From positions 1-64,000 of the forward strand of contig NZ_BKBA01000004.1 in the NCBI RefSeq assembly GCF_007992835.1: a stretch of DNA of 64,000 nucleotides, read 5' to 3'. The translations under genes were made by a program, and so were the position numbers. Below, piece by piece: positions 83 to 64,000 of this stretch. Under the pieces are notes generated by a model, which had not been told where the DNA came from, ran no database searches, and saw only the letters and a program-made list of their open reading frames with translations. This DNA is from Knoellia locipacati (lineage in GTDB: Bacteria; Actinomycetota; Actinomycetes; Actinomycetales; Dermatophilaceae). Each line of letters starts with the position of its first letter. The first letter of the stretch is position 1.

Positions 83-634
83 ATGCCCCTGACCAGCGCA
101 TTCGCCTATTCCGTTGAATGGTGCAGGAAACTCACGGAACAGAACTCCCGACTGTATGCCGTTCCCGCACCTCCCCAGGTCGCTGCCGCATTCGTCCTCC
201 AACACCTTCTGAGCATTCCTGCACAGGTGTCCGCATTTGCCGCAGCCACCGGTCCGTGGCGCGTCGATCTCGGCACTCTGACGACGCCTCTGCTCTCCGT
301 CGACCTCGCGCCGGGCCTCTATCCCGAGCGGATCGGCTTCCTCGCCGTGGAGCGGGCCGAGGCGGACCTCGAGGTCCGTGTCGGGGCGGCGCGCACGGCA
401 TACGTCCGGCTGGGTCGTGAGATCGCGACTGCCTACGACGTTGACGTGAAGATGTCGAGCCGCCAACGGCTCGGCATGGTCGAGGACCTGTGGGAGATGG
501 CGCTGCGCGAGGCGCGGGCCGCGACCGGTGCGGGCTGGGGACCGACCGTGGAGCGACGGTCGTGCTGCCTCATCTATGCCCTGCCCGGCTGCCACGAGTG
601 CGCCGGTTGCCCGCGGCTCGCCGACCTGACCTGA
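83..634 (+). CDS. FhuF-like (2Fe-2S) ferric-siderophore reductase family protein
   Basis: The 183-residue protein ends with RRSCCLIYALPGCHECAGCP. This matches the C-terminal 2Fe-2S motif of the FhuF family (paired Cys, then Cys-x2-Cys), which holds an unusual iron-sulfur cluster and reduces ferric iron released from siderophores in the cytoplasm. The middle carries the family-type stretch KMSSRQRLGMVEDLW. It is shorter than E. coli FhuF (about 260 residues), as in other actinobacterial members. ATG 83 was chosen because no in-frame ATG, GTG or TTG lies upstream before the window edge; the ribosome-binding site is weak. A palindrome at 42-70 may regulate it. No siderophore transport genes are visible nearby. 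Confidence 0.75.
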   Translation: MPLTSAFAYSVEWCRKLTEQNSRLYAVPAPPQVAAAFVLQHLLSIPAQVSAFAAATGPWRVDLGTLTTPLLSVDLAPGLYPERIGFLAVERAEADLEVRVGAARTAYVRLGREIATAYDVDVKMSSRQRLGMVEDLWEMALREARAATGAGWGPTVERRSCCLIYALPGCHECAGCPRLADLT

Positions 635-638
635 CGGC

Positions 639-893
639 TCAGACGCGGTCGAACCGTCCGCTCGTGACGCGGTAGGTCACGACCGCACCGGCCCGGCCCG
701 GCACCGTCAGGGAGGTCGGGTCGGCCACGGGGACGGGCGGTGGCGCGGGCAGGCGGTGGCCCGTCGCCACTCCGGCGGCCTGGGCTGCTGCTGGCGCGAG
801 GATCGCGGTACCGAGGAAGGCCACCGCGGTGGCCGACGCGACGGCGCCGAGGAGGCGGTGGGAACGGGGCTGGGTGGTCGTCGTGGTGTCCAT
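639..893 (-). CDS. Small exported protein, function unknown
   Basis: About 84 residues starting MDTTTTTQPRSHR. A hydrophobic stretch with small residues then ends in AAAQAAG, typical of a Sec signal peptide with cleavage near residue 40. The mature part is short, Pro-rich and has no recognised domain (ends VTYRVTSGRFDRV). A longer reading from 986 would overlap the stop region of the polymerase gene upstream. The 893 start has AGCAGGG at a plausible distance, so I prefer it. It lies downstream of the ligase/polymerase pair on the same strand. Confidence 0.45.
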   Translation of the reverse strand: MDTTTTTQPRSHRLLGAVASATAVAFLGTAILAPAAAQAAGVATGHRLPAPPPVPVADPTSLTVPGRAGAVVTYRVTSGRFDRV

Positions 894-990
894 GACGAGC
901 ACCCTGCTGGGCCCGCTCATGGACCGGCTGTGCGCGCGTTGTGCCGTCGCCATGAGCCTGCGCAGCCAGGGCTGCGCGGGCCCCACCCGG

Positions 991-1872: not shown

Positions 1873-2806
1873 CGGTCACCTCGTGCAGGTCGGCGGGCGT
1901 GAGGTCACTGCGGACCCCGAGGTATGCCGGCTGGCGCAGCTTCCCGGTCGAGCCCCGTCCCAGGGACTGCACCTCGACGACGACGGTCGGCTCGACCCAG
2001 AACGCGCCGGTCGAGTCCTCACGGGGGACGGCGTTGGAGAACGGGGACGCGCTGCGCCCCAGCGGTTCGAGCATCCTGGCGACCCGGGCACCCGCGGTGC
2101 CGGCCAGTCCGGCACCCACGCGACCGGCATACTCCCAGCCTCCGGCACCGTCGGGAGTCCCGACGAGGACGGCACCGAGCCGGTTGGTCGTCCCGACCTC
2201 GGGGCGCCAACCGCCGATGACGACCGACAGCGTCGCGCGGTGCGGGGACTTGCGCCAGTCCGGGGACCGGCGGCCCGCGGCATACGGGCTCGAACGCCTT
2301 TTGCTCACGATGCCCTCGAGGCCCTGGTCACGGGTCGCCTCGAAGAGCTCCTCGCCGTCGTCGTAGGTCGGCGGCACCTGCCACGCGGCGCCGCCGAGCT
2401 CGAGCCGCTCGAGCAGCTCACGCCGGGCCGACCACGGCTGGCTCGTGAGGTCGGACCCGAAGAGCCGCAGCAGGTCGAAGGCCATGAAGGTCACCGGTCG
2501 GGTCGCCGCGAGCTGCGCCGCCCTGCGCGCCGACGACACGTGCATCCGCTCGGCGAGCGCGCCGAAGGACGGGATGCCGCCGTCGAGGGCGACGACCTCG
2601 CCGTCGAGGAGGAGGTCGTCGTAGGTGTCGGCCAGCCCGGCGAGCTCGGGGAAGCTCACCGACACGTCGCGCCCGGTCCGGCTCGACAGGACGAGGCGAC
2701 CGTCGCGCACGTCGGCGAGGACGCGCATGCCGTCCCACTTCACCTCGTGCACCCAGTCGGGCCCGCGGGGGATCCCGTCCGCGACGGAGGCGAGCATCGG
2801 CTGCAT
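1865..2806 (-). CDS. ATP-dependent DNA ligase (LigC/LigD-type)
   Basis: A 313-residue ligase core. The adenylation motif I is EVKWDGMR (Lys is the AMP acceptor), motif III-like FMAFDLL and motif IV EGIVSKRR follow, and motif V is seen as DWRKSPHR. An OB-fold region ends in VEVQSLGRG. It seals nicks and double-strand breaks in end joining together with the polymerase gene it overlaps. I chose the ATG at 2806 (MQPMLA, the usual start for this family) rather than the upstream GTG at 2824. An AGGATGGGCGG stretch precedes it. Whether it counts as LigC or the ligase part of a split LigD cannot be settled here. Confidence 0.88.
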   Translation of the reverse strand: MQPMLASVADGIPRGPDWVHEVKWDGMRVLADVRDGRLVLSSRTGRDVSVSFPELAGLADTYDDLLLDGEVVALDGGIPSFGALAERMHVSSARRAAQLAATRPVTFMAFDLLRLFGSDLTSQPWSARRELLERLELGGAAWQVPPTYDDGEELFEATRDQGLEGIVSKRRSSPYAAGRRSPDWRKSPHRATLSVVIGGWRPEVGTTNRLGAVLVGTPDGAGGWEYAGRVGAGLAGTAGARVARMLEPLGRSASPFSNAVPREDSTGAFWVEPTVVVEVQSLGRGSTGKLRQPAYLGVRSDLTPADLHEVTDA

Positions 2807-6400: not shown

Positions 6401-8735
6401 CCTCATCGGTGCGTCGACGTTCGAGTCCTTCATCCAGAAGGACAAGCCGACCATCGACGCTCTCAACGCGGCAGGCCTCGAGGTCTCGGCGGTGGGCAAC
6501 CACGAGTTCGACCAGGGCTACGACGACCTGCTCAAGCGGGTCATGGCGCCCTACGACGCCACGAACAACCCGTTCGGCGGGGCCGCGTGGAAGTACATCG
6601 GGGCCAACGTCACCAAGGCCGGCGCCCCGGCCAGCGAGCTCCTCGAGCCCAGCTGGGTCAAGGAGATGAACGGCGTCAAGGTCGGCTTCATCGGCGCCGT
6701 CACCGAGCACCTCGACGAGCTGGTCTCCCCGGCCGGCATCCAGGGCGTGCAGATCAGTGACGTCGTCGCCGCCACGAACGCCGAGGCCAACGCCCTCAAG
6801 GCGTCCGGTGTCGACGTCATCGTGCTCCTCGTCCACGAGGGCGCACCGACCACCACCTGCTCCACGATGGACGACGACCCGACCTCGGACTTCGGTTCGG
6901 TCATCACGGGTGTCAACGACAACGTCGACGCGATCATCTCCGGGCACACCCACCTCGCCTACGACTGCTCCTTCCCGGTTGCCGGGTGGGCAGGTCGACC
7001 GGTCACCGAGCGCCCCGTCGTCTCGGCCGGCCAGTACGGCGTGAACCTCAACAAGCTCGTGTTCACCGTGGACAACGGCACGGGTCTGGTCCAGGCCAAG
7101 ACCCAGTCGATCGTGCCCCTCGAGAACAGCGCCGGTGTGGCCCAGTTCCCCGTCGACCCGGCCACCAAGGCCCTCGTCGACGACGCCGTCGCCAAGGCCG
7201 GTCCCCTCGGTGCCGTGCCGCTGGGCAAGCTCGGCGCTCCCTTCAACCGGGGCAAGCTCGCCAACGGGACGACCGAGAACCGCGGCCAGGAGTCGACCTT
7301 GGGCAACCTGGTCGCCGAGGTCCAGCGCTGGGCGACCCCCTCAACCGTGGGTGGCGCGCAGATCGGGTTCATGAACCCCGGTGGTCTCCGGCAGGACATG
7401 GCCGGCACCGGCACGGACTACCCGCGGGTGCTGTCCTACCGACAGGCCGCTGACGTGCAGCCGTTCGCCAACACATTGGTGAACCTGGACCTCACCGGTG
7501 CCCAGATCAAGGCCGCCCTCGAGCAGCAGTGGCAGCCGGCCGGCGCGGCCAGGCCGTTCCTCAAGCTCGGCCTCTCCAAGGGCTTCACCTACACCTACGA
7601 CCCGGATGCCGCACAGGGCTCCCGGATCAAGGACATGTGGCTCGACGGTCAGGCGATCGGTCTCGGCACGACGTATGCCGTCACCGCGAACTCGTTCCTC
7701 GCGGCCGGAGGCGACAACTTCAACGCCTTCTCGCAGGGGACGAACAAGCAGGACACGGGTGTGACCGACCTGCAGGCCATGGTCGACTACATGGCGGAGT
7801 TCGCCGGGGACGACGACCCGCCGCTGGTGCCGGACTACACGCAGCACTCCGTCGGCGTGGACTTCCCCGCCGCCGCGCCGAGCACCTACGCCCCCGGTGA
7901 CCACGTCCGGTTCACCCTCTCGTCGCTGGCGTTCTCCACGGCGCCGGACAAGAAGGACGCTCAGGTCGCGGTGTCGCTGGGCGGGCAGTCCCTCGGGACC
8001 TTCCCGGTCGACAACACCATCGGCACGGCGATCTTCGACGAGTACGGCACGGCGACGGTCGACGTGGTCGTCCCCGCGTCGACGACCCCGGGCACGCAGC
8101 GGCTCGACATCGTCGGGGTGCAGACGGGCACGACGACCTCGGTGCCCTTCACGGTGGTCAAGGCCGGGTCGAGCGTGAGCGCGACCGCGGCCCAGATCAC
8201 CTACGGTGCACCCGGTTCGGTCGTGGCCACGGTGACGCCCTCGGGTGCCACCGGCACGGTGACGGTCTCGCTCGGTGGCACCACGCTCGGCTCGGCGCCC
8301 CTGTCGGACGGGACGGCCAACGTCGCACTGGCCGCGAAGTCGCTCGAGCCCGGCACGCACGTGCTGACCGTCGCCTACTCGGGTGACGCCTCGCACGAGG
8401 GGTCGAGCACGACGGTCAGCGTCACGGTCGTCAAGGCGACGGCCACCGTCACCGTGACGCCCTCGCCGGACAAGCTCCAGAAGAACAAGGACTCGACGAC
8501 CCTCACGATCACCGTGGCGGCCGCGAACGTGACGCCGACGGGCACGGTCACCGTCCTCGTGGACGGCGTGTCGAGGAACGCCACGCTGAACGCCAGCGGG
8601 CGCGCCACGATGGTCCTGGGACCGTTCGGCACGATCGGCACCAAGTCGATCGTCGTGACCTACAACGGTGACGCGCACGTCACCACCGGCACCGGCACCA
8701 CCTCGGTGACGGTGGTCAACGGCAAGGTCAAGTGA
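3402..8735 (+). CDS. Giant secreted ExeM/NucH-like nuclease fused to a 5'-nucleotidase
   Basis: A 1,777-residue exported multidomain enzyme. The order is: signal peptide ending PASA (about 1-40), lamin-tail-like domain (from NVVISEVYGAGG, about 45-200), a putative-Ig domain (about 225-310), an OB-like region, an endonuclease/exonuclease/phosphatase domain (about 600-940; KLATFNVLNF, GDFNAY, SLDHV, SSDHNPE), a metallophosphoesterase 5'-nucleotidase (from ILGTNDFHGRL about 950, with GNHEFDQG), its C-terminal domain (NPGGLR, AAGGDNFNAF), then Ig-like repeats to the end. It could degrade extracellular DNA to nucleotides and then release phosphate and nucleosides. GTG 3402 was chosen: GAAAGG lies 8 nt upstream and it puts the signal peptide at the N-terminus. 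A terminator follows at 8758. Confidence 0.88.
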   Translation: MLRPPTVVSRGGRGRRTGAAAALLGLVVAPLASGFSTPASAVSPNVVISEVYGAGGNAGALYNADFVELSNPTSSPVSLAGKYIHYRAAAGGSGGAPVALTGSIPANGKYLIQMSATGANGAALPTPDAAPATFAMAAAGGQVYLLSSSSAITTSGNMAGVAGIVDMVGVSGSSSFETAAATVAGTAAVSVNRTAADADNNSAEFGTAAPTPTNAGPVAPATLEATAPGNKTGQVGSPVTGFTLAATGGTSPYSWSATGLPAGVTVAPNGAVSGTPTTAGTYDVTATVTDSATPTPATASATFTYTIGAAATLRPIAEIQGTGATTPFAGQDVLTNGVVTASYPTGGLNGFYLQTPGADTPDASDAIFVYGGTSGFATYPAVGDSVQVAGTAAEFSGATQIVASSVTPVAALGTVTPKTVVPGTDCALPGDSCLTGAALDTAREVAEGELFQPTAPWTLTDVYDGGPYYNDGTNSTANRGEMGVAANSSVPLVSPTEVIDAQATAAVTARKNYNDAHRIILDDASSLTFSTTQNSTQPLPWLTPTHTMRVGAGVTFTKPVVFTFGFNAWRILPQAQVVGAPTGALEIEQTRPAAPQNVGGDLKLATFNVLNFFPTTGEEFVSSGLGTCTYFTDRAGNRITNNSCNPNGPRGAANEANLARQRAKIVAAINTVGADIVSLEELENSVQFGKNRDFAIGELVTALNADAGAGTWAFVPSPAASALPPLSEQDVIRTGFIYKPANAAPVGESVVLADQSTGTEAFADAREPLAQAFKKVGSANANAFGVIVNHFKSKGSGTPDPNGQGNANDRRVLQANSLVAFANDFQTTRGITRMFLAGDFNAYSEEDPIQVLKAAGYTNLESTSDPEEESYNFDGQIGSLDHVLANAPAKADVNAVDIWDINSYEPLWYEYSRYNTNVTDLYAANPFRSSDHNPEIIGINTAPATGPVDIQILGTNDFHGRLLNNTGAPFPNEAGAAVLAGAVKQMRGENANTVFAAAGDLIGASTFESFIQKDKPTIDALNAAGLEVSAVGNHEFDQGYDDLLKRVMAPYDATNNPFGGAAWKYIGANVTKAGAPASELLEPSWVKEMNGVKVGFIGAVTEHLDELVSPAGIQGVQISDVVAATNAEANALKASGVDVIVLLVHEGAPTTTCSTMDDDPTSDFGSVITGVNDNVDAIISGHTHLAYDCSFPVAGWAGRPVTERPVVSAGQYGVNLNKLVFTVDNGTGLVQAKTQSIVPLENSAGVAQFPVDPATKALVDDAVAKAGPLGAVPLGKLGAPFNRGKLANGTTENRGQESTLGNLVAEVQRWATPSTVGGAQIGFMNPGGLRQDMAGTGTDYPRVLSYRQAADVQPFANTLVNLDLTGAQIKAALEQQWQPAGAARPFLKLGLSKGFTYTYDPDAAQGSRIKDMWLDGQAIGLGTTYAVTANSFLAAGGDNFNAFSQGTNKQDTGVTDLQAMVDYMAEFAGDDDPPLVPDYTQHSVGVDFPAAAPSTYAPGDHVRFTLSSLAFSTAPDKKDAQVAVSLGGQSLGTFPVDNTIGTAIFDEYGTATVDVVVPASTTPGTQRLDIVGVQTGTTTSVPFTVVKAGSSVSATAAQITYGAPGSVVATVTPSGATGTVTVSLGGTTLGSAPLSDGTANVALAAKSLEPGTHVLTVAYSGDASHEGSSTTVSVTVVKATATVTVTPSPDKLQKNKDSTTLTITVAAANVTPTGTVTVLVDGVSRNATLNASGRATMVLGPFGTIGTKSIVVTYNGDAHVTTGTGTTSVTVVNGKVK

Positions 8736-8787: not shown

Positions 8788-8851
8788 GGTCGTTGAACGA
8801 GGGTCGGCCGACGCCCGACGAGGTGGCCCGCGTGCGGCATACAGTTGACCC

Positions 8852-9782: not shown

Positions 9783-10619
9783 ATGCCCGAAGGCCACACC
9801 CTCTACGCCCTTGCCCGCGACCTCGACACCGCCTTCCGCGGCACGTCCCCGGTCGTCTCGAGCCCGCAGGGCAAGTTCGCCGACGGCGCCGCGCTCGTGA
9901 GCGGCACCGAGGTCCTCGGCGCGACGTCGTGGGGCAAGCACCTCTTCGTCGAGTTCGCGGGCGACCGCATCCTCTGGGTGCACCTGGGTCTCATCGGCAC
10001 CTTCACGATCGACACGACGTCGTATGCCGGCGAGATGCCGGTCGTGGGCCAGGTCCGGTGCCGCTTCGCGACCGACGACCACGTCGCCGACCTGCGCGGG
10101 CCCATGGTGTGCGACGTCGTCACTCCCGAGAAGGTCGACGAGATCCTCGGCCGGCTCGGCCCGGACCCGTTGCGCCCCAGCGACGTTCGCTCCGACCCCG
10201 ACCTCGCGTGGAAGCGGATCCAGCGTTCGAGCAAGCCCATCGCCGAGCTGCTCATGGACCAAGCCGTCCTCGCGGGAGTGGGCAACGTCTACCGCTCCGA
10301 GGTGCTGTTCCGGTTGCGGGTCAACCCCTTCCGGCCGGGCAACAAGCTCCAGCGCAAGACGTGGCGGGCCATCTGGGAGGACCTCGTCGCCCTGCTCCCG
10401 CTCGGCGTCGCCACGAGCAAGATCGTCACCGTCCACGACCAGGTCGACGAGGTCGCGCGGCTGCTCGAGGAGGGCGAGGAGGTCCGGCTCACCGAGCGTG
10501 AGTCCTACGTCTACAAGCGACAGGGCGAGGCCTGCCACGTCTGCGGGTCGCGCATCCGGACCCAGGTCGTCGCCGGCCGCAACCTCTTCTGGTGCGGCAA
10601 CTGCCAGCGCCGCGGCTGA
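9783..10619 (+). CDS. nei: Fpg/Nei family DNA glycosylase (endonuclease VIII type)
   Basis: 278 residues beginning MPEGHT. The Pro2 amine and Glu3 are the catalytic groups of the Fpg/Nei family, which removes oxidised bases and cleaves the abasic strand. The helix-two-turn-helix shows MDQAVLAGVGNVYRSE, and a zinc finger (CHVCGSRI ... CGNC) closes the protein. The GHT after Pro-Glu is more Nei-like than Fpg-like (Fpg usually has MPELPE). It sits 4 nt behind ku, linking base-excision repair with end joining. ATG 9783 is forced by the need for Pro2. Confidence 0.9.
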   Translation: MPEGHTLYALARDLDTAFRGTSPVVSSPQGKFADGAALVSGTEVLGATSWGKHLFVEFAGDRILWVHLGLIGTFTIDTTSYAGEMPVVGQVRCRFATDDHVADLRGPMVCDVVTPEKVDEILGRLGPDPLRPSDVRSDPDLAWKRIQRSSKPIAELLMDQAVLAGVGNVYRSEVLFRLRVNPFRPGNKLQRKTWRAIWEDLVALLPLGVATSKIVTVHDQVDEVARLLEEGEEVRLTERESYVYKRQGEACHVCGSRIRTQVVAGRNLFWCGNCQRRG

Positions 10620-10997
10620 ACCGTCCGCGGAGGGCTTGCCCTGAGCGGCAGGCGACGTCACCGTAATTCGGTGGCGCACGGCATACGCCGGTCCGCACAC
10701 TGGTCCACGGACAAGCGAGAGGAAGCAGCCGGAGCGGCGTGCCGCACACCGGTCCTGCGCATCGCCTCTCGTCGATGGATCCACGGGCATGCCCTGTCAA
10801 GGCTTCGGGTTCGACTCCCGCTCTTCCAGACAGGTGGTGCCGGTCGGAGCTCCGGACGCGAGTGCCAGCGGCCCGGGTGGTCAGGGAGACGCCCGCAGCC
10901 CCGCACGACCGTCCGCCGACCGGCGCCATCGCCGCGGCTCCGTCATGTCCGACGCCACACCACCCGTCCCACCGGCGCACCCCGAAGGAGGTTGCCC
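10620..10997. other. 378-bp intergenic region with a tRNA-like 3' end
   Basis: No convincing ORF. It holds one CGGCATAC copy (10679), a perfect small hairpin GCGGC-GT-GCCGC near 10734, and at 10805-10828 a segment resembling the T-arm and acceptor 3' strand of a tRNA (CGGGTTCGACTCCCG followed by CTCTTCCA). Upstream, GGAAG at 10721 could pair with CTTCC, but the rest does not fold into a tRNA. A Shine-Dalgarno GAAGGAGG at 10984-10991 belongs to the next gene. This may be a tRNA relic or attachment-site scar, or chance. Confidence 0.35.
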
Positions 10998-11657: not shown

Positions 11658-11834
11658 GGTCCGGGTCCGCGGGTGGGGTCGCCAGTGCGACCGCACCCGC
11701 GGACCTGCCGGTATGCCGGCCGCCCACCAAGGCGTGGAGTCCCCCCGGCGCCCGACGGTGGGCGGCTTCGGAGCCGACTCCCGGCGCAGTCTCAGGTTCC
11801 GGGGCCATCATGGACGGGAGTGGAAGGACCTCCC

Positions 11835-12793: not shown

Positions 12794-12819
12794 GTGACGG
12801 TCCATGAAAGGGACGTCAC
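12794..12819. promoter_or_regulatory. clpC: Imperfect palindrome upstream of clpC
   Basis: GTGACGGTCC (12794-12803) and GGACGTCAC (12811-12819) are near-inverted repeats about 60 nt before the clpC start. They could be an operator for a stress regulator of clpC or the weak terminator of the preceding gene. They do not match a ClgR or CIRCE/HAIR element that I can recognise. Confidence 0.25.
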
Positions 12820-12877
12820 GGCATACAGGCAGCGGGGATAGCATCGAGGTGACTCATATCAGTCAGGAGCCAGCACC

Positions 12878-15456: not shown

Positions 15457-15501
15457 AAGGCGGCGTATGCCGGAACGAAAGTTCCCGGCATACGCCGCCT
15501 T
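15457..15501. terminator. Long terminator hairpin with both arms carrying the GTATGCCG octamer
   Basis: A stem of about 20 bp with one bulged base and a GAAA tetraloop. The left arm is AAGGCGGCGTATGCCGG plus AAC; the right arm is GTTC plus CCGGCATACGCCGCCTT. It begins 36 nt after the clpC stop and is followed by TTCG. It is symmetric enough to stop transcription from both sides, between clpC and the convergent DUF305 gene. Confidence 0.8.
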
Positions 15502-51174: not shown

Positions 51175-51507
51175 GGGTCAGGGTCCTCTCATCGCTGGGA
51201 CGGGGTCGACCCCTCCGGCCCGCGGAACCCTGCGCGATCCCCGACCCGATGACGTCACCCCCCGTGGGTGCCAGGCACAGCGAGACTGCGTGACGTGTCA
51301 CAAATCTCCGCGTATGCCGTGTCGCACCCTACCGTCTGAAAGTGGCCTCACCCTAGGTGTCCATACCCACTCTTGACTTACCGAGCAGTAGTTGAACCCT
51401 CCATTTCCACGCCCCACGTGCGACTGATTGCCCCACCGGGACACCTCTCAGGTCGACGTCTTGCCCTGTCAGGACATGTCGTCGCCACGCTGCAGGCGAC
51501 GGTGAGG
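51175..51507. promoter_or_regulatory. 333-bp region upstream of the MoxR operon
   Basis: No ORF is supported. It holds the palindrome GTGACGTGTCAC (51290-51301), one GTATGCCG (51312), TAGGGT-like -10 candidates on the minus strand near 51328-51356, a 23-bp inverted-repeat copy (51421-51443, see the mobile element entry), and a GTCGCC/GGCGAC hairpin near 51482-51500 that may end the DUF559 gene. The palindrome resembles CRP half-sites but has the wrong spacing (4 rather than 6). Confidence 0.4.
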
Positions 51508-52556
51508 TCACCAGACCTTCCGGGTGAACTCCTGGGCCACCATGCGCCGCCATGTCGCGATCTCCGCCTCGACGCCGCACTCATCCAATCTGCGCCTGCA
51601 GCAGGAGCACCTGAGGATGGCGTCGACGGATCTGGGCGGACCCGCGGAGCGCTGGAAGCGAGTGTGGATCTCTCCTCCGTCGATGGCCTCTCGGGGAGTC
51701 CACCGCACCACAGCCAGTCCGAGGTCGGTGAACCCACGCTGCCGCTCCTCCTCGGCGAGCAGACGCCGTCCCACCTGCTGCTCCGATGCGCCGTCCTCGA
51801 GGTACTTGGCCACCCCGTCAGCCTCGCCGACGACACCCTCGCGGCTCCACAACACGTCGCACCTGCCGATGTGACGGCCCGCCGGGGTGAGGATGTCGAC
51901 CTGGGGCACGCCGATGGGAAGTCCCCATCGATGGGTGGCCCAGGCCGATGCGGACTCCAGCCAGTTCTCGCGTCGGCCGTCCACAAGCAGGAGGACGTGT
52001 TCGATGCCGCGACACCGGGCCACCTCCGCTGGTGGGACCTCATCGTCCACAGCTCCTCACGGGTGACGAGACCGGCTCGCAGCGCGCCGTCGGCGATCGC
52101 CAGAGCGTCGCGGGGGTGAAGCTCGCGGGCGCAGTCGATGACGGTCCGGGCCACGACGAACTCCGGAACCCCGGCGGAGATCCGCACGTGTTCGTAGGGC
52201 GTCGCTCCTCGATGGAACTGCCGCCAGGTGTCCGACCTGCTGGTCCGCAGGTCGTCGAGCACCGTCATGGCGACGTGCTGCGGAGGGTGGGTCGGGTGTG
52301 GCAGCCCCAGAAGGGCAGCAGCACTCGAATGACTCACGATGGCGTCCTTCGTCAGCCGGACGGCGGCTTCGGCCTTCATCCGGTGCTGCTCCCAGGCGGA
52401 GTGGGACTCCCAGGACGAGCGGACGGCATACAGGCGTTCGGCAACACGCACGAGCGTGCCGGAGGCCGCGGCGCGGCTCATCGCGCGGGCCGACAGTCCG
52501 GCTGCAACCACATCGGCGCGGACGAAGGGCTGAGGAAGCTCGTCGAAGGGAACCAT
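51508..52556 (-). pseudogene. Frameshifted AbiEi-like wHTH + DUF559 (Vsr-like nuclease fold) gene
   Basis: The start at 52556 (MVPFDELPQPFVRADVVAAG) gives a winged-helix AbiEi_4-like N-terminus and a conserved middle up to QRRWPGVAAS. The continuation, GIEHVLLLVDGRRENWLES and the PD-(D/E)xK-like core RCDVLWSREGVVGEADGVAKY, lies in another frame ending at 51508. One lost base near 52006-52012 (a GCGCGGC stretch) explains the switch: restoring one base reads GVAR-IEHVLLLVDGRREN. Catalytic-type residues (E in WLES, D in CDVLW, E in GEADG, K in AKY) remain. This family is not a proven antitoxin. A sequencing error is an alternative. Confidence 0.75.
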
Positions 52557-55835: not shown

Positions 55836-56528
55836 CTAGTCGAGGAGGACGAGGTCCTTCTCGGTGACCATGCGCGTCGACAGGGCGTGCTCGACGAGCC
55901 GCGCCTTGCGGTTGCTCGCGAGCTTGCCGGGCCCACCGTGCAGGCCCCGGGTGCCCGCGTCGGCGAGCTTCTGGCAGACGTTGTCGAGCTTGCGGTTGAA
56001 CTTGGTCGTCGTCCACCCCAGCCGCTGCGCCGCCTGGGCGGAGGACGGGATCTGGCCCTGGCCGGCATACGTCGTGCGCAGGAAGCTCTCGCAGAGAGCG
56101 ACCACGAGCAGCTTCTGGTCCGGGGTCATCGAGACGCGGCCGACGGTCGTCTCACCCGGGGAGTCCTCGGGCTCGGGCTCGGGCTCGGTGACGATCGAGG
56201 TGAAGGTCGCGTCGTCGACGGTGATGTCGAAGTCGTAGGTCGTCGGCCCCGCCGTGAACCACACGGTGAACGCCTCGAGCGCGAGCGGGATGCGGGCACC
56301 CGGCGAGAGCCACGCCTGGAACAGCCCCTTGCGGTCGCCGACCGTCGCCGTGAGCGTCGAGCCGACGTTGGTGAGCCACCAGAGGTCGTGCTCGCGGTGC
56401 ACCTGGAGGAAGACCCGGTGCAGGTAGGGGTTGTCGTCGATCTCGACGTCGGCCACCCGGCCGATCGTCAGCGGGGCGTCCTCGTTCGCCGTGAACTCCT
56501 CGCCGCAGAACTCCACCGTCACCGACAT
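55836..56528 (-). CDS. FHA-like protein with C-terminal winged-helix domain
   Basis: 230 residues. The N-terminal FHA-like beta-sandwich (about 1-108; PLTIGRVADVEIDDNPYLHRVF) keeps the GR but lacks the usual S-x-x-H and NG residues, so phospho-Thr binding is doubtful. An acidic linker follows (TEPEPEPED), then GETTVGRVSM (Thr128), a possible kinase site resembling the N-terminal Thr motif of GarA-type proteins. A C-terminal helix-turn-helix (about 135-230; AAQRLGWTTTKFNRKLDNV) ends it. It starts 4 nt after the kinase stop. Possibly a kinase-controlled switch or regulator; inferred. Confidence 0.72.
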   Translation of the reverse strand: MSVTVEFCGEEFTANEDAPLTIGRVADVEIDDNPYLHRVFLQVHREHDLWWLTNVGSTLTATVGDRKGLFQAWLSPGARIPLALEAFTVWFTAGPTTYDFDITVDDATFTSIVTEPEPEPEDSPGETTVGRVSMTPDQKLLVVALCESFLRTTYAGQGQIPSSAQAAQRLGWTTTKFNRKLDNVCQKLADAGTRGLHGGPGKLASNRKARLVEHALSTRMVTEKDLVLLD

Positions 56529-56532: not shown

Positions 56533-58020
56533 TCATCCTCCCTGGACGCACTTGATGGGCGAGTAGGGCGAGGTCGTCCCGGCGGCCCTCGCGACCGCGA
56601 CCTGCGCGCAGACCAGCTCGCCCGGCTTGGCGCTCACCTTGAACGGCATCACCTTGACCGACTTCACGACCGCCTCCGGGATCGCTGCCTCGCTCGACGC
56701 GATCCGCATCGGGAAGAAGTCGCCCTTGCGGACCCCGGCGTACTGCCACGAGAACACGACGCCTCCGGCGATGCCCTGGCCGTCGATCTGCGGCTGCTCG
56801 GCCATGTCGACGATCGAGCCGCCGCCACCCGTCGTCACCGAGGCGGACGGCGCGTCGGTCGAGGCCTCGGTCGGCTCGTCACCACCCCGGAAGCCGATCG
56901 CCCACACGAGCGCACCGACGAGCGCCACGAGCAGAACGCCCACGCCGGCCAGCAGCGCACCGCCGCTGATCGTCGTCGGCTGCGGGCCGTCGTCGGTCTC
57001 GGTGGCCGGGCGTTGCGCGGTGCTCGCCGGGGCCGGGGACTGGGTCTGCGCCGAGGTGACCTTGGGGGCGCGCACGCTCGTGCGGTCGGGGTCGGCCTCC
57101 TCGGGCGCGGCCCTGCCGGTGCTGTCGGCGACCGTCGTGTGGCCCGACTCGTCGAGGACGACGATTGGCGTGCGGGCGAAGCGCTGCTCCTGCTCGATCG
57201 CCTGCAGACCGCGCGCGAAGTCGATCGCGGTCTGGGGGCGGGCGTCGGGCTTCTTGGCCATGGCGTGGCCGAGCAGCCGCTCGAGGCTGATCGGGACGTC
57301 CGCGCGTCCGGTCTGCGGGACCGGCGTCGCCCGGATGCGGGGCATGAGCGCGTATGCCGAGTTGTCGCCTCCCGGCTGCTCGAACGGCGAGCGCCCGACC
57401 AGGAGGTGCCAGAGGGTGGCCGCGAGCGAGTAGACGTCGCTGCGCGCGTCACCGTTGCTCTGGCCGTAGAGCACCTCGGGCGGCGACCAGGGGACGGAGA
57501 CACCCACGTCCTCGTCGTGCTCCTCCTGCCCGACCGCACGACCGGCGATGCCGAAGTCGGTGAGGCCGGGTGCGCCGTACTGGCTCACGAGGACGTTGGC
57601 CGGCTTGATGTCGCGGTGCACGATGCCCGCGCGGTGCGCGGTCTCGACGGCGGAAGCCAGCTGTATGCCGGTCCGCAGCACCTCCTCGACGCTGAGCCGC
57701 TCGCGCTTGGCGCGGGTCGCGAGGTTGGGCGGCGGGTAGTACTTCATCACCAGGTAGGCGCCGCCGTCGGCGAGCTGCTCGCTGCGGAAGACCTGGACGA
57801 TGTAGGGGTGGTCCGCGAGCTGGGCCATGGTGTCGGCCTCCTCGACGAACTGCCGCAGGATCGCCGGGGTCAGGCCCTCGCGCTTGAGGACCTTGACCGC
57901 GACCGGCATCCGCGGCTGCTGCTGCTCGTAGAGGAAGACGTCGGCGTAGCCGCCGGAACCCAGGGGTTGGCGGTAGACCAGCCCGGGGATCTCCGGGGCC
58001 GTGACGGGTGGTCGGGTCAC
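56533..58020 (-). CDS. Membrane Ser/Thr protein kinase
   Basis: 495 residues. The Hanks-type kinase domain (about 10-275) has Gly loop LGSGGYADVFLY, Lys in PVAVKVLKREG, catalytic HRDIKPANVLVSQ, DFGIAG, and SPPEVLYG. A juxtamembrane linker (PDRTSVRAPKVTSA), one transmembrane helix (about 375-395, GGALLAGVGVLLVALVGALVWAI) and a small extracytoplasmic domain (about 90 residues, two Cys) follow. The GTG start at 58020 overlaps the FHA gene stop by 4 nt. It lies between two FHA proteins and close to PP2C, a compact phospho-signalling set. PASTA repeats are absent, so it is not PknB. Confidence 0.93.
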   Translation of the reverse strand: MTRPPVTAPEIPGLVYRQPLGSGGYADVFLYEQQQPRMPVAVKVLKREGLTPAILRQFVEEADTMAQLADHPYIVQVFRSEQLADGGAYLVMKYYPPPNLATRAKRERLSVEEVLRTGIQLASAVETAHRAGIVHRDIKPANVLVSQYGAPGLTDFGIAGRAVGQEEHDEDVGVSVPWSPPEVLYGQSNGDARSDVYSLAATLWHLLVGRSPFEQPGGDNSAYALMPRIRATPVPQTGRADVPISLERLLGHAMAKKPDARPQTAIDFARGLQAIEQEQRFARTPIVVLDESGHTTVADSTGRAAPEEADPDRTSVRAPKVTSAQTQSPAPASTAQRPATETDDGPQPTTISGGALLAGVGVLLVALVGALVWAIGFRGGDEPTEASTDAPSASVTTGGGGSIVDMAEQPQIDGQGIAGGVVFSWQYAGVRKGDFFPMRIASSEAAIPEAVVKSVKVMPFKVSAKPGELVCAQVAVARAAGTTSPYSPIKCVQGG

Positions 58021-59576
58021 TCCGCGACCTCGTAGGTGAGGGAGACCTCGTCGGCGAGGGTGACGACCGCTCCCGGCTCGATGCCGAAGTCCTCGGTGGG
58101 ACGCAGCCGGACGGGTTCCTGCCCCGGCAGGGTCACCGTGGTGCCGTTGGTCGAGCCGAGGTCGCGCACGAGCACGTGCCAGCCCTCGAGGATGACCTCG
58201 GCGTGGTTGCGCGAGATGTCGTTGTCCTTGGAGGCCAGACGCACGAGGTGGGGACGGCTGCTCGGGGGCAGGTCCGAGTTCACCTTGGGCGAGCGTCCGA
58301 GGAGGATGCCCCGGTCGAGGGAAACGAGCCCGCCCGTCGAGACCCGGAAGACACCGAGCTGGGGTCGCGGCGTCTGGAACGGCTGCTGCGTCGGGATGTC
58401 TCGGCCGCACACCCGGCAGCTGCTCGCGTGGGGGGACGAGTGGTGACCCGCCGGGCAGATGACGGCGAGGACGATCGGGCTGTCGGCAGGACCGTCGGTG
58501 GCCGGGTTGAGCGAGCTGCGGTCCATCGTGACGTCGGGCACCGGGGGGAGGTTCGCGGCCTGTGCCTCGGGCTCGGGTTCGGCGACCGGGACCGGCATCG
58601 CCTCGGTGGCGGGCATGCCGCCACCGGCAGGTGGGGCGGGTGCGGGCCCGTCCTCGAAGGACGGCGGCGAGGGCGGCGGACCGGTGAGACCCCAGTTGTC
58701 GGGACCCGTGGGGCCGTCGGCCGCGTCGGGCACCGGGGCTGCCGGTGGCTCGGCCGCGATGGCCGGCTCGGGGGCCGGTGGGGCGGCCGCTGCCGGAGCC
58801 GCCTGCGCGGGTGCCGGTGTCGCGGGGCGGTCGCCGTCGGGCAGCGTGCGCCACGGCACGCTGTCGATGAGGACCTTCTTCTCGGCCTTGGGCTGCGGCT
58901 CGGGGGCGACGCGCTCGGCGGGAGCGGCCCCGGCGTACTCCTCGGACGGGGGCAGGGTGAGGTCGGCGGGCGGAGGCGCCGGGGGTGCCAGGGCCGCGGG
59001 CGAGAGCTGGCTCTCCGCGGACGGCTCGTCGACGGCGGACGGCTCGTCGACGGCGGACGGCTCGTCGACGGCAGGCTCGTCCGGAGGGTCGGCCTGCGCC
59101 GGAGCCTCGGGATCCTCGGCGGCCTCGGGAAGGTCGTCGACCTCGGGCGCCGGCACACGCTCGGGCTCGGGGACGGACGCAACAGCAGCAGCAGCGGGTC
59201 GTCCCAGACGCCTGGGTCGCTTCCAGCCGCCCCGGCCACCGGGCCCGGCCAGCTCGAGAGCGGCCGCGGCGAGATCCAGGTCGCGCCACGGCATACGACC
59301 GTCTGCGGTGACCTCGTCACCGTCGGCGCGCACGACGGCGGAACCCCGCACGACGACGCGCGCCTGCTGTCCGGACGTGTCCGCGAGCGCGAAGTCCGGG
59401 AGCGCCCGCAGCCCGTCGCGCGACAGCGCCTCGAGGACCTCGACGAGGCCCGTCTCGAGCGGACCGCGCAGGTCCTCGGCCATCGCCGCCGAGCCCTGGA
59501 CGACCAGGTGACGGTCGCCTGCTGACAACGCGACCCAGCCCGCGGGGGTCTGGGTCGTGACCTCGGTGCTGCTCAC
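58017..59576 (-). CDS. FHA-domain protein with zinc-ribbon-like segment
   Basis: 519 residues: an uncharacterised N-terminal domain (about 1-100), a long Pro/Glu/Ala-rich region with a threefold DEPSAV repeat, a Cys/His segment (CPAGHHSSPHASSCRVCG) that may bind zinc, and a C-terminal FHA domain with the full phospho-Thr set: ILLGRSP, DISRNHAEV and LGSTNGT. It probably docks a phosphorylated partner of the neighbouring kinase. It lies 11 nt downstream of PP2C and overlaps the kinase gene. Confidence 0.88.
   Translation of the reverse strand: MSSTEVTTQTPAGWVALSAGDRHLVVQGSAAMAEDLRGPLETGLVEVLEALSRDGLRALPDFALADTSGQQARVVVRGSAVVRADGDEVTADGRMPWRDLDLAAAALELAGPGGRGGWKRPRRLGRPAAAAVASVPEPERVPAPEVDDLPEAAEDPEAPAQADPPDEPAVDEPSAVDEPSAVDEPSAESQLSPAALAPPAPPPADLTLPPSEEYAGAAPAERVAPEPQPKAEKKVLIDSVPWRTLPDGDRPATPAPAQAAPAAAAPPAPEPAIAAEPPAAPVPDAADGPTGPDNWGLTGPPPSPPSFEDGPAPAPPAGGGMPATEAMPVPVAEPEPEAQAANLPPVPDVTMDRSSLNPATDGPADSPIVLAVICPAGHHSSPHASSCRVCGRDIPTQQPFQTPRPQLGVFRVSTGGLVSLDRGILLGRSPKVNSDLPPSSRPHLVRLASKDNDISRNHAEVILEGWHVLVRDLGSTNGTTVTLPGQEPVRLRPTEDFGIEPGAVVTLADEVSLTYEVAE
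59017..59070. repeat. Three tandem 18-bp units in the FHA gene
   Basis: The unit GCGGACGGCTCGTCGACG is repeated exactly at 59017, 59035 and 59053. It encodes the DEPSAV-type repeat of the linker on the minus strand. In-frame copy-number change would alter linker length. Confidence 0.9.
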
Positions 59577-60403: not shown

Positions 60404-60879
60404 GCGCCACCACCCATCGGGTCGAGCTGCACCGTCTCGAGGATCGACTGGACGTCCTCGTAGTCCTGCTCGGAGTCGGGGCCCGCGATGCGACCGGTGA
60501 GCCGCACGAGCTGGGTGACGTCGCCGGCCGGGACCGCGGTGACGAGGTGCACGAGGTAGACCGGCTCGCCGTCCTCGATCCACGAGACGTTGAGACCGGT
60601 CCAGTCGCGCTCGCCGATCTCGACGGTGAACGTCTCCTCGGCCTCACCCTCCTCGTGCCCGTCGGCCTGGCTCGCGAGGTCGTCGACGAGGTCGTCGGTG
60701 CTCGCCCCGCGCGTCGTGTGGACGTATGCCGTGAGCTCGGGAGCGAGGTCCCCTCCCCTGCCGTGGACGGCGCGCAGGAGGGCGTCGCCACCGGGCTCGG
60801 CGACCCAGCCGTCGGGCAGGGTCAGCTCGATGCGCGGGAGTGCCGGGCTCAGAGCGCTGGGATGGCCCACCGTGGGCAT
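60400..60879 (-). CDS. Small protein resembling the LpqN-like domain
   Basis: 159 residues. The pattern (RIELTLPDGWVAEPG, LTAYVHTTRGAS, YLVHLVTAVPAGDVTQLVRLTGR) resembles LpqN/DUF1795-type folds, although no signal peptide is seen. ATG 60879 (MPTVGHPS) follows GGAGGTGG. It overlaps PP2C by 4 nt and probably belongs to the same operon. Function unknown. Confidence 0.55.
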   Translation of the reverse strand: MPTVGHPSALSPALPRIELTLPDGWVAEPGGDALLRAVHGRGGDLAPELTAYVHTTRGASTDDLVDDLASQADGHEEGEAEETFTVEIGERDWTGLNVSWIEDGEPVYLVHLVTAVPAGDVTQLVRLTGRIAGPDSEQDYEDVQSILETVQLDPMGGGA

Positions 60880-61548: not shown

Positions 61549-61567
61549 GGGCGTGATCGGGCCGTGG

Positions 61568-63013
61568 CTACGTCGACTCGGGCTGCTCGGACCACCAGCG
61601 CAGAAGGTGCTCGGTGGCGGCCTCCTTGCCCAGGGGCCCCTCGTCGAGCCGCACCGCGAGGAGGTACTTGTAGGCACGGCCGAGCACGGGTCCGGGGCTG
61701 ATCCCCAGCACTGCCGCGATCTCGTTGCCGTCGAGCTCGGGCCGCACGGCGCCGAGCTCCTCGGCCTCGAGGAGCCTGTCGATCCGGGCCTCGAGCTCGT
61801 CGTAGGTGCGCGAGAGCCGCTGGGCCTTGCGGACGTTGCGGGTGGTGCAGTCGGCCCGGGTCAGGCGGTGCAGCCGCTGGAGCAGCGGCCCGGCGTCGGT
61901 GACGTAGCGGCGCACGGCGGAGTCGGTCCACTGTCCGTCGCCGTAGCCGTGGAAGCGGAGGTGCAGCTCGACGAGACGCGCCACCGCCTTGACGGTGTCC
62001 TTGTCGAAGCGCAGCGCCTTGAGCCGTTTGGCCGTCATCTTGGCGCCGACGACCTCGTGGTGGTGGAAGCTCACACCCCCGCCGGCCTCGAAGCGTCGGG
62101 TCGGGGGCTTGCCGATGTCGTGGAGCAGCGCGGCGAGCCGCAGCCAGAGGTCGGGCCCGGGCACCGACTCCTCGGGGCCGTCGACCGGACCCTCGAGGGC
62201 GATCGCCTGGTCGAGGACGATGAGCGAGTGGACGTAGACGTCCTTGTGGCGGTGGTGCTCGTCCACCTCGAGCTGGAGGGCCGGGAGCTCGGGCAGCACA
62301 TGAGAGGCCAGGCCGCTCTCGGCGAGCAGCTCGAGACCGGGCCGGGGCCGCGGCGCCATGAGCAGCTTGACGAGCTCGTCGCGCACCCGCTCGGCCGAGA
62401 CGATCCCGATGGTGGAGGCCATCTCCTGCATCGCGGCATACACCTCGGGAGCCGGGACGAGACCGAGCTGCGCAACGAAGCGGACCGCCCGCATCATCCG
62501 CAGCGGGTCGTCGCCGAAGCTCACCTCGGGGGTCGAGGGGGTGCGCAGCAGCCCGGCCTGCAGGTCGTCGAGCCCACCGTGGGGGTCGACGAACTCGAGC
62601 GAGGGCAGGCGCAGGGCCATGGCGTTGACGGTGAAGTCACGACGGACGAGGTCGTCCTCGAGGGACTCGCCGAACGCGACGACGGGCTTGCGGGTCACCC
62701 CGTCGTAGGCGTCGGCCCGGTACGTCGTCACCTCGACGGTGGTCTCGCTGCCGCCCTCACGCCGCACGGCGCCGATGGTCCCGAACTCGCGGCCCATGTC
62801 CCAGGTGGAGCTGCCCCAGGAGCGCAGGATCGCCTCGGTCTCGTCGGGCGAGGCGCTCGTCGTGAAGTCGAGGTCCGGCGGCGTCCGGTCGAGGAAGGCG
62901 TCGCGGACCGGCCCGCCGACGAGTGCGAGCTCGTGGCCCGCCTGCGTGAAGCGGGTGCCGAGGTCGGTGAGCAGCGGCAGCACCGGCGCGAGACGAGCGA
63001 CGGCCTGCTTCAT
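61568..63013 (-). CDS. CCA-adding tRNA nucleotidyltransferase with HD domain
   Basis: 481 residues from ATG 63013. The class II nucleotidyltransferase head has LVGGPVRDAFLDRTPPDLDFTT (catalytic DLD), DDLVRRDFTVNAMAL, then DPLRMMRAVRFVAQLGL and an HD domain (LAALLHDIGKPPTRR; FHHHEVVGA). It adds or repairs the CCA tail of tRNA. GTG 63043 would add ten residues (VSPSPPPAAL) and is possible; neither start has a clear ribosome-binding site. A strong hairpin follows. Confidence 0.92.
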   Translation of the reverse strand: MKQAVARLAPVLPLLTDLGTRFTQAGHELALVGGPVRDAFLDRTPPDLDFTTSASPDETEAILRSWGSSTWDMGREFGTIGAVRREGGSETTVEVTTYRADAYDGVTRKPVVAFGESLEDDLVRRDFTVNAMALRLPSLEFVDPHGGLDDLQAGLLRTPSTPEVSFGDDPLRMMRAVRFVAQLGLVPAPEVYAAMQEMASTIGIVSAERVRDELVKLLMAPRPRPGLELLAESGLASHVLPELPALQLEVDEHHRHKDVYVHSLIVLDQAIALEGPVDGPEESVPGPDLWLRLAALLHDIGKPPTRRFEAGGGVSFHHHEVVGAKMTAKRLKALRFDKDTVKAVARLVELHLRFHGYGDGQWTDSAVRRYVTDAGPLLQRLHRLTRADCTTRNVRKAQRLSRTYDELEARIDRLLEAEELGAVRPELDGNEIAAVLGISPGPVLGRAYKYLLAVRLDEGPLGKEAATEHLLRWWSEQPEST

Positions 63014-63101
63014 GAGAGCGGCGGGGGGCGGAGAGGGTGACACGAGGAACAAGAGTAGGTGTCGCCGCGGCGGGCCCCCGCCCGCCGTGGTGCGCTGGCC
63101 C

Positions 63102-64000
63102 CTACTTCCGCAGCGGGTCGAAGGCCGTGAGCAGGGCCCGGTCGCCGGCGCTGGAGGTGCCGGTCATCGCCCCGGCGAGGAGCTTGCCGGTGAGCGGTCC
63201 GAGCGCGACGCCCCACATGCCGTGGCCGCCGGCGACGAAGACCCGGTCCGAGCGGCTCGCTCCCACGAGCGGCAGCCCGTCCGTGGTGCACGGGCGCGAG
63301 CCGACCCACTCGTCGTGGCGCTCCGACCAGTCGACACCGGTGAACATCGGGGTGGCGGCGTCGACGATGGCCTGGACCCGGCGCGGGTCGAGCGGGTCGT
63401 CGGGGCTGCGGAACTCCATCATCCCGGCGACCCGCAGGCCCTCCTCGGGCTTGCCGAGCGGCGTGCACGCGACCCGCTGCGTCGGGAAGTAGACCGGTCC
63501 TGTGGGCACCTGGTCAGGGTGAACCGTGAAGCTGTAGCCGCGTCCGGCCTGGACGAGCTTGCGTATGCCGTGTGCTCGCGCGAGCCCTCCGACCCAGCTG
63601 CCGTTCGCGAGGACGACCGAGTCGGCGACGACGGACTCGCCGTTCTCGAGCGTGACGCGGACCTCGGGGCCCCGCTGGCTGACGTCGGTGACGCGGGCGC
63701 CGGTGGCGATCTCGCCGCCACGGGCGGTGACGGCGTCCGCGAGCGCGTGCACGAACCGGCCCGGGTTGAGGTAGCGCTGGCCGTTGAGGCGCACGCCGTG
63801 CGTCACGGCGTCGCCGAGCGAGGGCGCGAGGGTGTGCAGGTCGTCGCGGTCGAGCAGCTCGAAGTCGGTGAGGCCACCGGTCGCGGCGACGTGGCGGAAC
63901 TCCTCGACGAGCACGGAGCGGTCGGCCTCGCTCACGAACCCGGCAAGGAAGGGCTCGGCGTCGAGGGTGGGCTCCTCCACCCGGCCGGTGCCCTCGTGCC
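63102..64000 (-). CDS. FAD-dependent D-amino-acid dehydrogenase-like protein (DadA family), N-terminus cut by the window edge
   Basis: About 299 residues are visible and the reading frame stays open to the window end. The substrate-binding and C-terminal FAD parts are present: NGQRYLNPGRFVHALADAV, GRGYSFTVHPDQVPTGPVYF, GSRPCTTDGLPLVGAS and VFVAGGHGMWGVALGPLTGKLL. It oxidises D-amino acids to keto acids. The N-terminal FAD GxGxxG motif would lie outside. The ATG at 63980 is internal, not the start. Confidence 0.85.
   Translation of the reverse strand, partial: HEGTGRVEEPTLDAEPFLAGFVSEADRSVLVEEFRHVAATGGLTDFELLDRDDLHTLAPSLGDAVTHGVRLNGQRYLNPGRFVHALADAVTARGGEIATGARVTDVSQRGPEVRVTLENGESVVADSVVLANGSWVGGLARAHGIRKLVQAGRGYSFTVHPDQVPTGPVYFPTQRVACTPLGKPEEGLRVAGMMEFRSPDDPLDPRRVQAIVDAATPMFTGVDWSERHDEWVGSRPCTTDGLPLVGASRSDRVFVAGGHGMWGVALGPLTGKLLAGAMTGTSSAGDRALLTAFDPLRK

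What the first reader, a model, noticed from the sequence alone, without database searches (positions are those of the whole stretch)
396..63570. Octamer GTATGCCG/CGGCATAC is about 20-fold over-represented
I find at least 44 copies in 64 kb, both orientations about equal (20 versus 24), in genes and intergenic DNA. At about 71 percent GC roughly 2 are expected. The word uses TAT, ATA and GCA codons that this genome otherwise avoids, so it cannot be a codon-bias effect. It is absent from clpC, the ribosomal protein operon and ino1, and frequent in the giant repeat-protein genes (about 12 in 13 kb). The lack of strand bias argues against a polar segregation signal such as KOPS. It resembles a HIP1-like or uptake-signal-like element, or a site tied to methylation or restriction.
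Basis: partly seen in the sequence, partly recalled or inferred. Interest (0 to 1): 0.82.

Follow-up and report, generated by a model that had tools for sequence, protein, structure and literature searches.

The report
Genome-wide one-way DNA signpost in Knoellia
One eight-letter DNA word is repeated about 2,500 times in this bacterium, evenly spaced on each strand and kept by its relatives, so it is probably a "this is our DNA" mark read in one direction during DNA uptake or repair; what reads it is not known.

Summary
GTATGCCG occurs 45 times in the window (0.15 expected, order-3 model) and 2,535 times in the genome (1,266 and 1,269 per strand; reversed-word control 99). The genome is a Knoellia (Dermatophilaceae). 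All 8 congeners searched and 108 of 186 family genomes carry at least 100 copies per Mb; none of 290 genomes sampled elsewhere in the class does. The octamer is the core of a longer one-sided signal with a weaker 3' flank to +33. Orthologous copies are conserved about twice as often as neighbouring 8-mers. Other genera carry dialects (GTATGNCG; CGTATGCCGCTGGGCT). Same-strand copies avoid each other up to about 1.5 kb; opposite-strand copies ignore each other. This holds in two species, and none of 138 control 8-mers comes near; it points to a reader working in one direction or on one strand. Best reading: a self-DNA signal of the uptake-signal kind, unreported in Actinomycetota as far as my searches show. 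Main rival: a Chi-like signal for AdnAB. RecBCD-Chi, KOPS, HIP1 and mobile-repeat readings are disfavoured. The reader protein was not found: ComEA, ComEC, DprA, Tad-like pilus genes and AdnAB also occur in genomes without the motif.

The parts
154..161 (+). GTATGCCG site
396..403 (-). GTATGCCG site
1922..1929 (+). site inside gene 1865-2806 (LigD-like by my reading)
2125..2132 (-). site inside gene 1865-2806
2278..2285 (-). site inside gene 1865-2806
7673..7680 (+). site inside gene 3420-8735
8835..8842 (-). intergenic site
10022..10029 (+). site inside gene 9783-10619
10679..10686 (-). intergenic site
11711..11718 (+). intergenic site with near-consensus 3' flank
12819..12826 (-). intergenic site
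15465..15493 (.). two inverted sites (15465 +, 15486 -) forming a hairpin downstream of clpC, terminator-like
17981..17988 (+). intergenic site
18081..18088 (-). intergenic site
20356..20363 (+). site in gene 20122-21039 (MutY-like by my reading)
20967..20974 (-). site in gene 20122-21039; conserved in 6 of 6 aligned congeners, not in G020
23648..23655 (+). intergenic site; conserved in 7 of 7 aligned congeners, not in G020
26382..26389 (-). intergenic site
27869..27876 (+). site inside gene 27626-29824
30682..30689 (-). intergenic site upstream of ino1
32148..32155 (+). site inside gene 31950-32759
32957..32964 (-). intergenic site
33025..33032 (+). site at the start of a small gene
35358..35365 (-). 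site in giant gene 33276-39530; conserved in 6 of 6 aligned congeners
35655..35662 (+). site in giant gene 33276-39530
37025..37032 (+). site in giant gene 33276-39530
37499..37506 (-). site in giant gene 33276-39530
39515..39522 (-). site in giant gene 33276-39530
40567..40574 (-). site in giant gene 39730-46116
42121..42128 (+). site in giant gene 39730-46116
43333..43340 (-). site in giant gene 39730-46116
43968..43975 (-). site in giant gene 39730-46116; conserved in 6 of 6 aligned congeners
44446..44453 (+). site in giant gene 39730-46116; conserved in 6 of 6 aligned congeners
45270..45277 (-). site in giant gene 39730-46116
48432..48439 (-). site in gene 46113-48524; conserved in 6 of 6 aligned congeners, not in G015
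51312..51319 (+). intergenic site
52424..52431 (-). site scored intergenic by my gene caller
56063..56070 (-). site inside gene 55836-56528
57352..57359 (+). site inside gene 56533-58020
57663..57670 (+). site inside gene 56533-58020
59289..59296 (-). site inside gene 58017-59576
60724..60731 (+). site inside gene 60400-60879
62434..62441 (-). site inside gene 61568-63013
63563..63570 (+). site inside gene 63102-64361 (runs past the window)

Best explanation
GTATGCCG is the core of a genome-wide self-DNA recognition signal of the uptake-signal kind, used by much of the Dermatophilaceae. A reader protein (not identified) recognises the exact octamer plus a weaker 3' flank reaching +33. The likeliest setting is natural transformation through Tad-like pili, ComEA, ComEC and DprA. 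There the signal would favour import or integration of kin DNA, and would spread and be maintained because marked fragments are integrated more often. To explain why the strands are independent, I infer that it is read on the incoming single strand or by a one-directional machine. Shown here: excess, even polar spacing, flank, dialects, conservation, family limits, presence of the genes. Inferred: that uptake is the process, that reading is on single-stranded DNA or one-way, and that drive maintains the sites.
For: Excess: 325 copies against 1.5 expected in 450 kb; the 24 one-mismatch words total 246 against 189, so there are few decayed copies. Both strands equal, 1,266 and 1,269. Intergenic share 86 of 325 while about 13% of the sequence is intergenic. 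Convergent hairpin pairs within 30 bp: 10 against 1.7 expected. Same-strand spacing averages 2.76 kb with CV 0.67 against 0.985 (sd 0.055) for random placement. Long one-sided 3' flank, strongest in intergenic sites and present in coding sites against a codon-phase-matched background; the flank model trained on this genome's intergenic sites scores sites above random positions in G003 (p about 6e-55), and weaker flank goes with closer same-strand neighbours (Spearman 0.12, p 0.04 in G000; 0.14, p 0.01 in G003). Orthologous sites are intact in 50-75% of cases against 24-37% for nearby 8-mers in the six congeners with at least 16 aligned sites. Dialects share the core. ComEC in 25 of 25 and 27 of 27 genomes, DprA in 20 of 20, ComEA in 20 of 20 loci, T2SSF (Tad-like) genes in 41 of 41. 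Published uptake signals share the density, strand balance, reported even spacing, hairpin pairs, extended form and dialects (PMC2238722, PMC7811141, PMC2397512, PMC3630211: passages only).
Against: The transformation genes are present in genomes without the motif too; no gene or residue tracking the motif was found. Orientation has no significant effect on H. influenzae uptake (PMC1939737, passages), so strand-specific repulsion is not predicted by a plain uptake model. [quoted passage not shown] Competence in Knoellia is undocumented to my knowledge, and no uptake specificity is known to me in single-membrane bacteria. The repulsion is weak in G011 and absent in G019 (66 sites).
Confidence: 0.48

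Rival explanations
1. Chi-like recombination signal: AdnAB (or another helicase-nuclease), entering at a broken DNA end, reads the motif in one orientation and switches from degrading to resecting. Each direction of travel needs its own evenly spaced sites.
For: Same-strand repulsion with strand independence is what a polar translocating reader predicts. This genome has two adjacent helicase-nuclease genes whose best PDB matches are chains A and B of 6ppj/6ppr/6ppu/7sjr/9np6, named there DNA helicase or UvrD/REP helicase; that these entries are mycobacterial AdnAB is recalled. RecC is absent from this genome. [quoted passage not shown]
Against: The nuclease domain is found in 25 of 25 genomes, motif or not, as an adjacent pair in 24 (in the draft G001 on two contigs). 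No AdnA or AdnB alignment column separates 12 motif-bearing (one of them weakly, G024) from 8 motif-free genomes (0 columns). A 200-fold excess is far above Chi in E. coli (761 copies against about 71-85 expected, PMC2238722, passages). A flank to +33 is long for Chi. No regional strand skew was seen.
Confidence: 0.25
2. Some other one-directional reader (for example a lineage-specific defence or genome-maintenance translocase) uses the motif as a self mark; it is dispensable and has been lost several times.
For: Near-total loss inside genera: G131 50 copies against 394-1,901 in its 30 congeners, G046 (89% complete) 37 against 1,251-1,660 in 4, G105 19 against 1,062 and 3,681. The genes tested do not explain it.
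Confidence: 0.17
3. HIP1-like or methylation/restriction-linked word.
For: Very frequent, dispersed and lineage-specific like HIP1 (recalled).
Against: Not palindromic; flank reaches +33; same-strand-only repulsion is not expected from an enzyme that acts at each site separately; restriction sites are usually avoided rather than enriched (recalled). Methylation itself was not tested.
Confidence: 0.05
4. Segregation (KOPS-like), terminator, promoter or mobile-element repeat.
For: Some inverted pairs lie where terminators would be.
Against: Strands are about equal in every contig and region sampled; 130 sense, 103 antisense, only 86 of 325 intergenic; only 10 convergent pairs within 30 bp among 325 sites; no repeat body beyond the graded flank in this genome.
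Confidence: 0.05

Closest known systems
Uptake signal sequence (USS) of Haemophilus influenzae / Pasteurellaceae
   Same: Short exact core plus longer weak flank (29 bp form), about 1 per kb, equal on both strands, reported as evenly spaced, hairpin pairs at gene ends, sharp drop between perfect and one-mismatch words (passages).
   Different: Different sequence and phylum; single-membrane host; here spacing is even within each strand and independent between strands (whether USS behaves so was not testable here); uptake never tested here; USS uptake does not depend on orientation.
DNA uptake sequence (DUS) of Neisseriaceae, read by ComP
   Same: Dialects by clade with a conserved core, intergenic placement, inverted pairs as terminators (passages). 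The 12-mer ATGCCGTCTGAA shares ATGCCGT with the commonest form here, which may be chance.
   Different: The essential DUS core is CTG, not present here; ComP was not searched for; no PilT over the family cut-off in 25 genomes.
Chi (E. coli GCTGGTGG, RecBCD; AddAB)
   Same: Non-palindromic octamer read in one orientation; exact match needed (recalled).
   Different: Excess about 10-fold in E. coli against 200-fold here; strand-skewed there (recalled), balanced here; this genome lacks RecC.
HIP1 of cyanobacteria
   Same: Very frequent dispersed octamer (recalled).
   Different: HIP1 is palindromic (recalled), so it has no polarity; this word has a polar flank and polar spacing.

Membership tests
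DNA uptake signal (USS/DUS) | Strong excess of an exact short word, balanced between strands, about 1 per kb | tested here: met
   2,535 copies, 1,266/1,269, 0.7 per kb
DNA uptake signal (USS/DUS) | Extended weaker consensus around the core | tested here: met
DNA uptake signal (USS/DUS) | Inverted pairs in terminator-like hairpins | tested here: met
   10 convergent pairs under 30 bp against 1.7 expected (3 divergent against 1.7); transcription termination not tested
DNA uptake signal (USS/DUS) | Clade-wise dialects sharing a core | tested here: met
   G011 and G023
DNA uptake signal (USS/DUS) | Transformation machinery present | tested here: met
   present in motif-free genomes too, so not diagnostic
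DNA uptake signal (USS/DUS) | Presence of the motif tracks a receptor or competence gene | tested here: not met
   none of the tested genes tracks it; the true receptor may not be among them
DNA uptake signal (USS/DUS) | Fragments carrying the word are preferentially taken up | not testable with these tools
   needs a transformation assay
Chi site | Read in one orientation by a translocating enzyme | tested here: inconclusive
Chi site | RecBCD present as cognate enzyme | tested here: not met
   no RecC match in the own genome (found in 5 of 25)
Chi site | AddAB present as cognate enzyme | not tested
   AddAB was not searched by name; an AdnAB-type pair is present but its Chi response is unknown
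Chi site | Motif alters resection or stimulates recombination | not testable with these tools
   needs biochemistry
KOPS / AIMS | Strand skew toward the terminus | tested here: not met
   balanced in the contigs and regions sampled; origin and terminus were not located
HIP1 | Palindromic GCGATCGC word (recalled) | tested here: not met
   the word differs and is not its own reverse complement

The most novel reading that the evidence does not exclude
A strand-polar self-DNA signal in Actinomycetota that is read on single-stranded DNA or by a one-way motor, with each strand keeping its own evenly spaced set: either the first Chi-type signal for AdnAB-bearing bacteria, or an uptake signal recognised after strand separation, a step where no uptake specificity is known to me.
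Probability: 0.5. Interest if true: 0.9.

Novelty: new variant of a known kind. Interest (0 to 1): 0.8.

Why it matters
Experimentally known uptake signals are, as far as I know, confined to Pasteurellaceae and Neisseriaceae. A family-wide signal in Gram-positive actinobacteria would be an independent origin, with 31 genera holding a high-copy member, at least two dialects and three clear within-genus losses as natural experiments. If it is Chi-like instead, it gives a concrete sequence with which to answer whether AdnAB obeys a Chi, which two papers state is unknown or unclear. Either way the polar spacing is a measurable property that could be checked in Haemophilus and Neisseria and would sharpen models of how such signals evolve.

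Tried and rejected
An apparent 46-kb run of same-strand sites on contig C2 was an artefact of the shortened listing. RecBCD-Chi: RecC is absent from the own genome and found in 4 of 8 motif-free genomes but only 1 of the other 17 (G019). AdnAB as reader by covariation: no separating columns. ComEC, ComEA and a neighbouring DegV-like protein (name from my reading): 1, 0 and 1 separating columns, no better than label permutations (means 0.19, 0, 0.18). PilT: none over cut-off in 25. Truncated ComEC match in motif-free G131: its contig ends 140 bases after the match, so it is an assembly edge and says nothing. The excess of CCGTTGCC in two Nocardioides loci is mostly a low-complexity repeat cluster. 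GGATGCCG in motif-free G009 (44 against 11.6) was looked at and left as weak.

Limits. My gene calls come from a simple codon-score script, so sense/antisense/intergenic counts carry some error. The random positions used for the flank score were not matched for codon phase, so its p values overstate the case; the phase-matched profile is. The conservation table covers the 30 window sites between 9 and 52 kb, where they aligned: G006 (2 of 6), G003 (3 of 4), G015 (1 of 3), G020 (0 of 5) and G019 (0 of 1) had few aligned sites and are outside the 50-75% range quoted. In the AdnAB tree and columns the incomplete G014, G017 and G021 sequences were kept, and weak G024 was counted as motif-bearing. 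The 290-genome background was read by eye from the listing.
Full report
What is there. The window holds 45 exact GTATGCCG sites, 21 on + and 24 on -. Base composition predicts 2.2 and an order-3 model with the sites masked predicts 0.15. It is the most over-represented 8-mer by that measure. The whole genome (3.59 Mb, 19 contigs) has 2,535, split 1,266 and 1,269, against 99 for the reversed word. In a 450-kb sample (window plus 386 kb) there are 325 sites where 1.5 are expected, while the 24 one-mismatch words total 246 against 189 expected. The signal is close to all-or-nothing.

Whose genome. The ino1 neighbours are Knoellia, Janibacter, Pedococcus and other Dermatophilaceae/Intrasporangiaceae. 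The congener G006 has ino1 at 2848-3936 of a 341,590-base contig, the same place and contig length as Knoellia subterranea KCTC 19937 (L021), so the genus is Knoellia. The 8 other genomes of the genus that were searched have 1,971-3,277 copies.

How widely. Of 186 family genomes (the own one included), 108 have at least 100 copies per Mb, 13 have 40-100 and 65 fewer than 40; 31 of 53 genera have a high member (tallied). Outside the family, 14 genomes of the order (2-102 copies) and 290 genomes of the class (maximum about 51 per Mb read by eye) are at background. Among 80 named loci of 7-21 kb, five are clearly positive: Knoellia subterranea, two Pedococcus, an uncultured Tetrasphaera and an unnamed MAG (L029). 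Three Janibacter, Phycicoccus flavus and Dermacoccus have 0 or 1 copy. One outlier, a MAG labelled Nocardioidaceae (L094), has 4 in 10.7 kb and was not followed up; a few mycobacterial and Ornithinimicrobium loci have 2-3. A tree of AdnA+AdnB from 20 genomes places motif-free lineages among motif-bearing ones (for example G009 beside Knoellia and G020, G018 beside G011 and G012), and the deep lineage G019 has 3,071 copies. The simplest reading is one old origin with several losses, each followed by almost complete erasure; repeated gain is not excluded. Losses within a genus are visible in G131, G046 and G105.

Anatomy. Around the octamer the sequence is not random. In 68 intergenic sites outside hairpins the 3' side shows T/G at +8, C at +10, G at +11, C at +12, +14 (76%) and +16, T at +18, and C at +33 (59%, T 3%), counting the first G as 0. 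Several of these, +8, +14, +18 and +33 among them, stand out in coding sites too against a codon-phase-matched background. A flank score built only from these intergenic sites is higher at sites than at random positions in G003 (n = 362, p about 6e-55), G015 (n = 105), G019 (n = 62), Pedococcus (n = 27) and L029 (n = 17), but not in G011 (n = 66) or G020 (n = 6); the random positions were not phase-matched, so these p values are too good. G011 has a dialect in which the sixth base is free: GTATGNCG with C 66, G 40, A 38, T 19 copies in 100 kb, against 5-8 expected each. G023 has a longer word, CGTATGCCGCTGGGCT or close to it, seen in most of its 30 listed sites. Four motif-free genomes showed no comparable replacement word in 81-100 kb each; the strongest was GGATGCCG in G009, 44 against 11.6.

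Placement. In 450 kb, 130 sites are sense, 103 antisense, 86 intergenic and 6 at gene edges; about 13% of the sequence is intergenic. In genes two frames dominate (Tyr-Ala in sense, Ala-Tyr in antisense; 187 of 233 coding sites), as expected if protein function limits where a site can sit. Ten convergent pairs closer than 30 bp make hairpins, such as 15465-15493 after clpC.

Polar spacing. Consecutive sites alternate strands more than chance (219 opposite, 100 same). Pair counts show why. Same-strand pairs 40 bp to 1.5 kb apart are scarce (74 against about 168 in this genome, 104 against about 181 in G003), while opposite-strand pairs in that range are not (168 against about 169; 205 against about 181). 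Among 139 words of this genome sample with 200-500 copies, the motif included, the motif is lowest for same-strand pairs (0.45 of expectation; the next lowest 0.87; the set averages 1.14) and ordinary for opposite-strand pairs (0.98). G015 and a pool of three other Knoellia show the same trend; G019 (66 sites) does not and G011 only weakly. So two nearby sites are redundant only if they point the same way. A reader indifferent to orientation, such as an ordinary double-strand DNA binder, a methylase or a simple surface receptor, does not predict this. A one-way motor, or a reader of one strand, does.

Conservation. For six congeners at about 79-85% identity with 16-26 aligned sites each, 50-75% of sites are intact against 24-37% of 8-mers in the same alignments. 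Many lost coding sites are one or two changes away.

What it most likely is. The sum of density, excess, strand balance, even spacing, core plus flank, hairpin pairs and dialects matches published uptake signals: Haemophilus USS are described as equally divided between strands and significantly evenly spaced, with a 29-bp extended form (PMC2238722, passages; PMC7811141, passages), though another paper calls the spacing less even than a compaction role would need (PMC1939737, passages); Neisseria DUS have dialects with a shared core and inverted pairs (PMC3630211, PMC2397512, passages). The genome has ComEC, ComEA, DprA and Tad-like pilus genes; Micrococcus luteus transforms with ComEA/ComEC homologues and Flp/Tad pili (PMC6370729, passages). 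But these genes are equally present without the motif, and plain uptake does not predict polar spacing. I therefore add the inference that reading happens on the incoming single strand. In that case a + site helps only when the + strand enters, so sites on the two strands do not make each other redundant.

Main rival. A Chi-like signal predicts the polar spacing directly. The genome has an AdnAB-type pair and no RecC, and the literature states that Chi control of AdnAB is unknown or unclear. Against it stand the size of the excess, the flank length, the loss of the motif in lineages that keep AdnAB, and the lack of any separating residue.

Prior knowledge. Searches for the octamer in full text (643 papers hold the letters; the 20 listed are unrelated by title), for uptake sequences with Actinobacteria or Micrococcus terms and for Knoellia with motif terms (15 of 3,525 listed) showed no report of this motif in the listings I saw. 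The library holds open-licence papers only, so this is no proof of absence. PMC2346458 was read in part (first of three parts).

Noticed in passing
G011 (L110-L114): Dialect GTATGNCG: sixth base free, 163 copies in 100 kb.
   Followed up: partly
G023 (L120-L124): Long dispersed word close to CGTATGCCGCTGGGCT in most of 30 listed TATGCCG sites in 100 kb, both strands.
   Followed up: partly
   Followed up: partly
G014, G017, G018, G019, G021: RecBCD-type RecC is patchy in the family and mostly in motif-free genomes (4 of the 5).
   Followed up: no
L094 (MAG labelled Nocardioidaceae): 4 motif copies in 10.7 kb, reversed control 0, outside the family by its label; may be mislabelled or an independent case.
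   Followed up: no
window 33276-46116: Two adjacent genes of about 2,100 residues each, similar at their starts; function not identified.
   Followed up: no
window 991-2806 and 8852-9778: LigD-like and Ku-like genes (names from my reading of the first residues), so end joining is likely encoded here.
   Followed up: no
G009 (L135-L139): GGATGCCG 44 against 11.6 expected in a motif-free genus beside Knoellia; weak, may be codon use.
   Followed up: partly
motif versus Neisseria DUS12: The commonest form ATGCCGT shares seven letters with the Neisseria DUS ATGCCGTCTGAA; probably chance.
   Followed up: no
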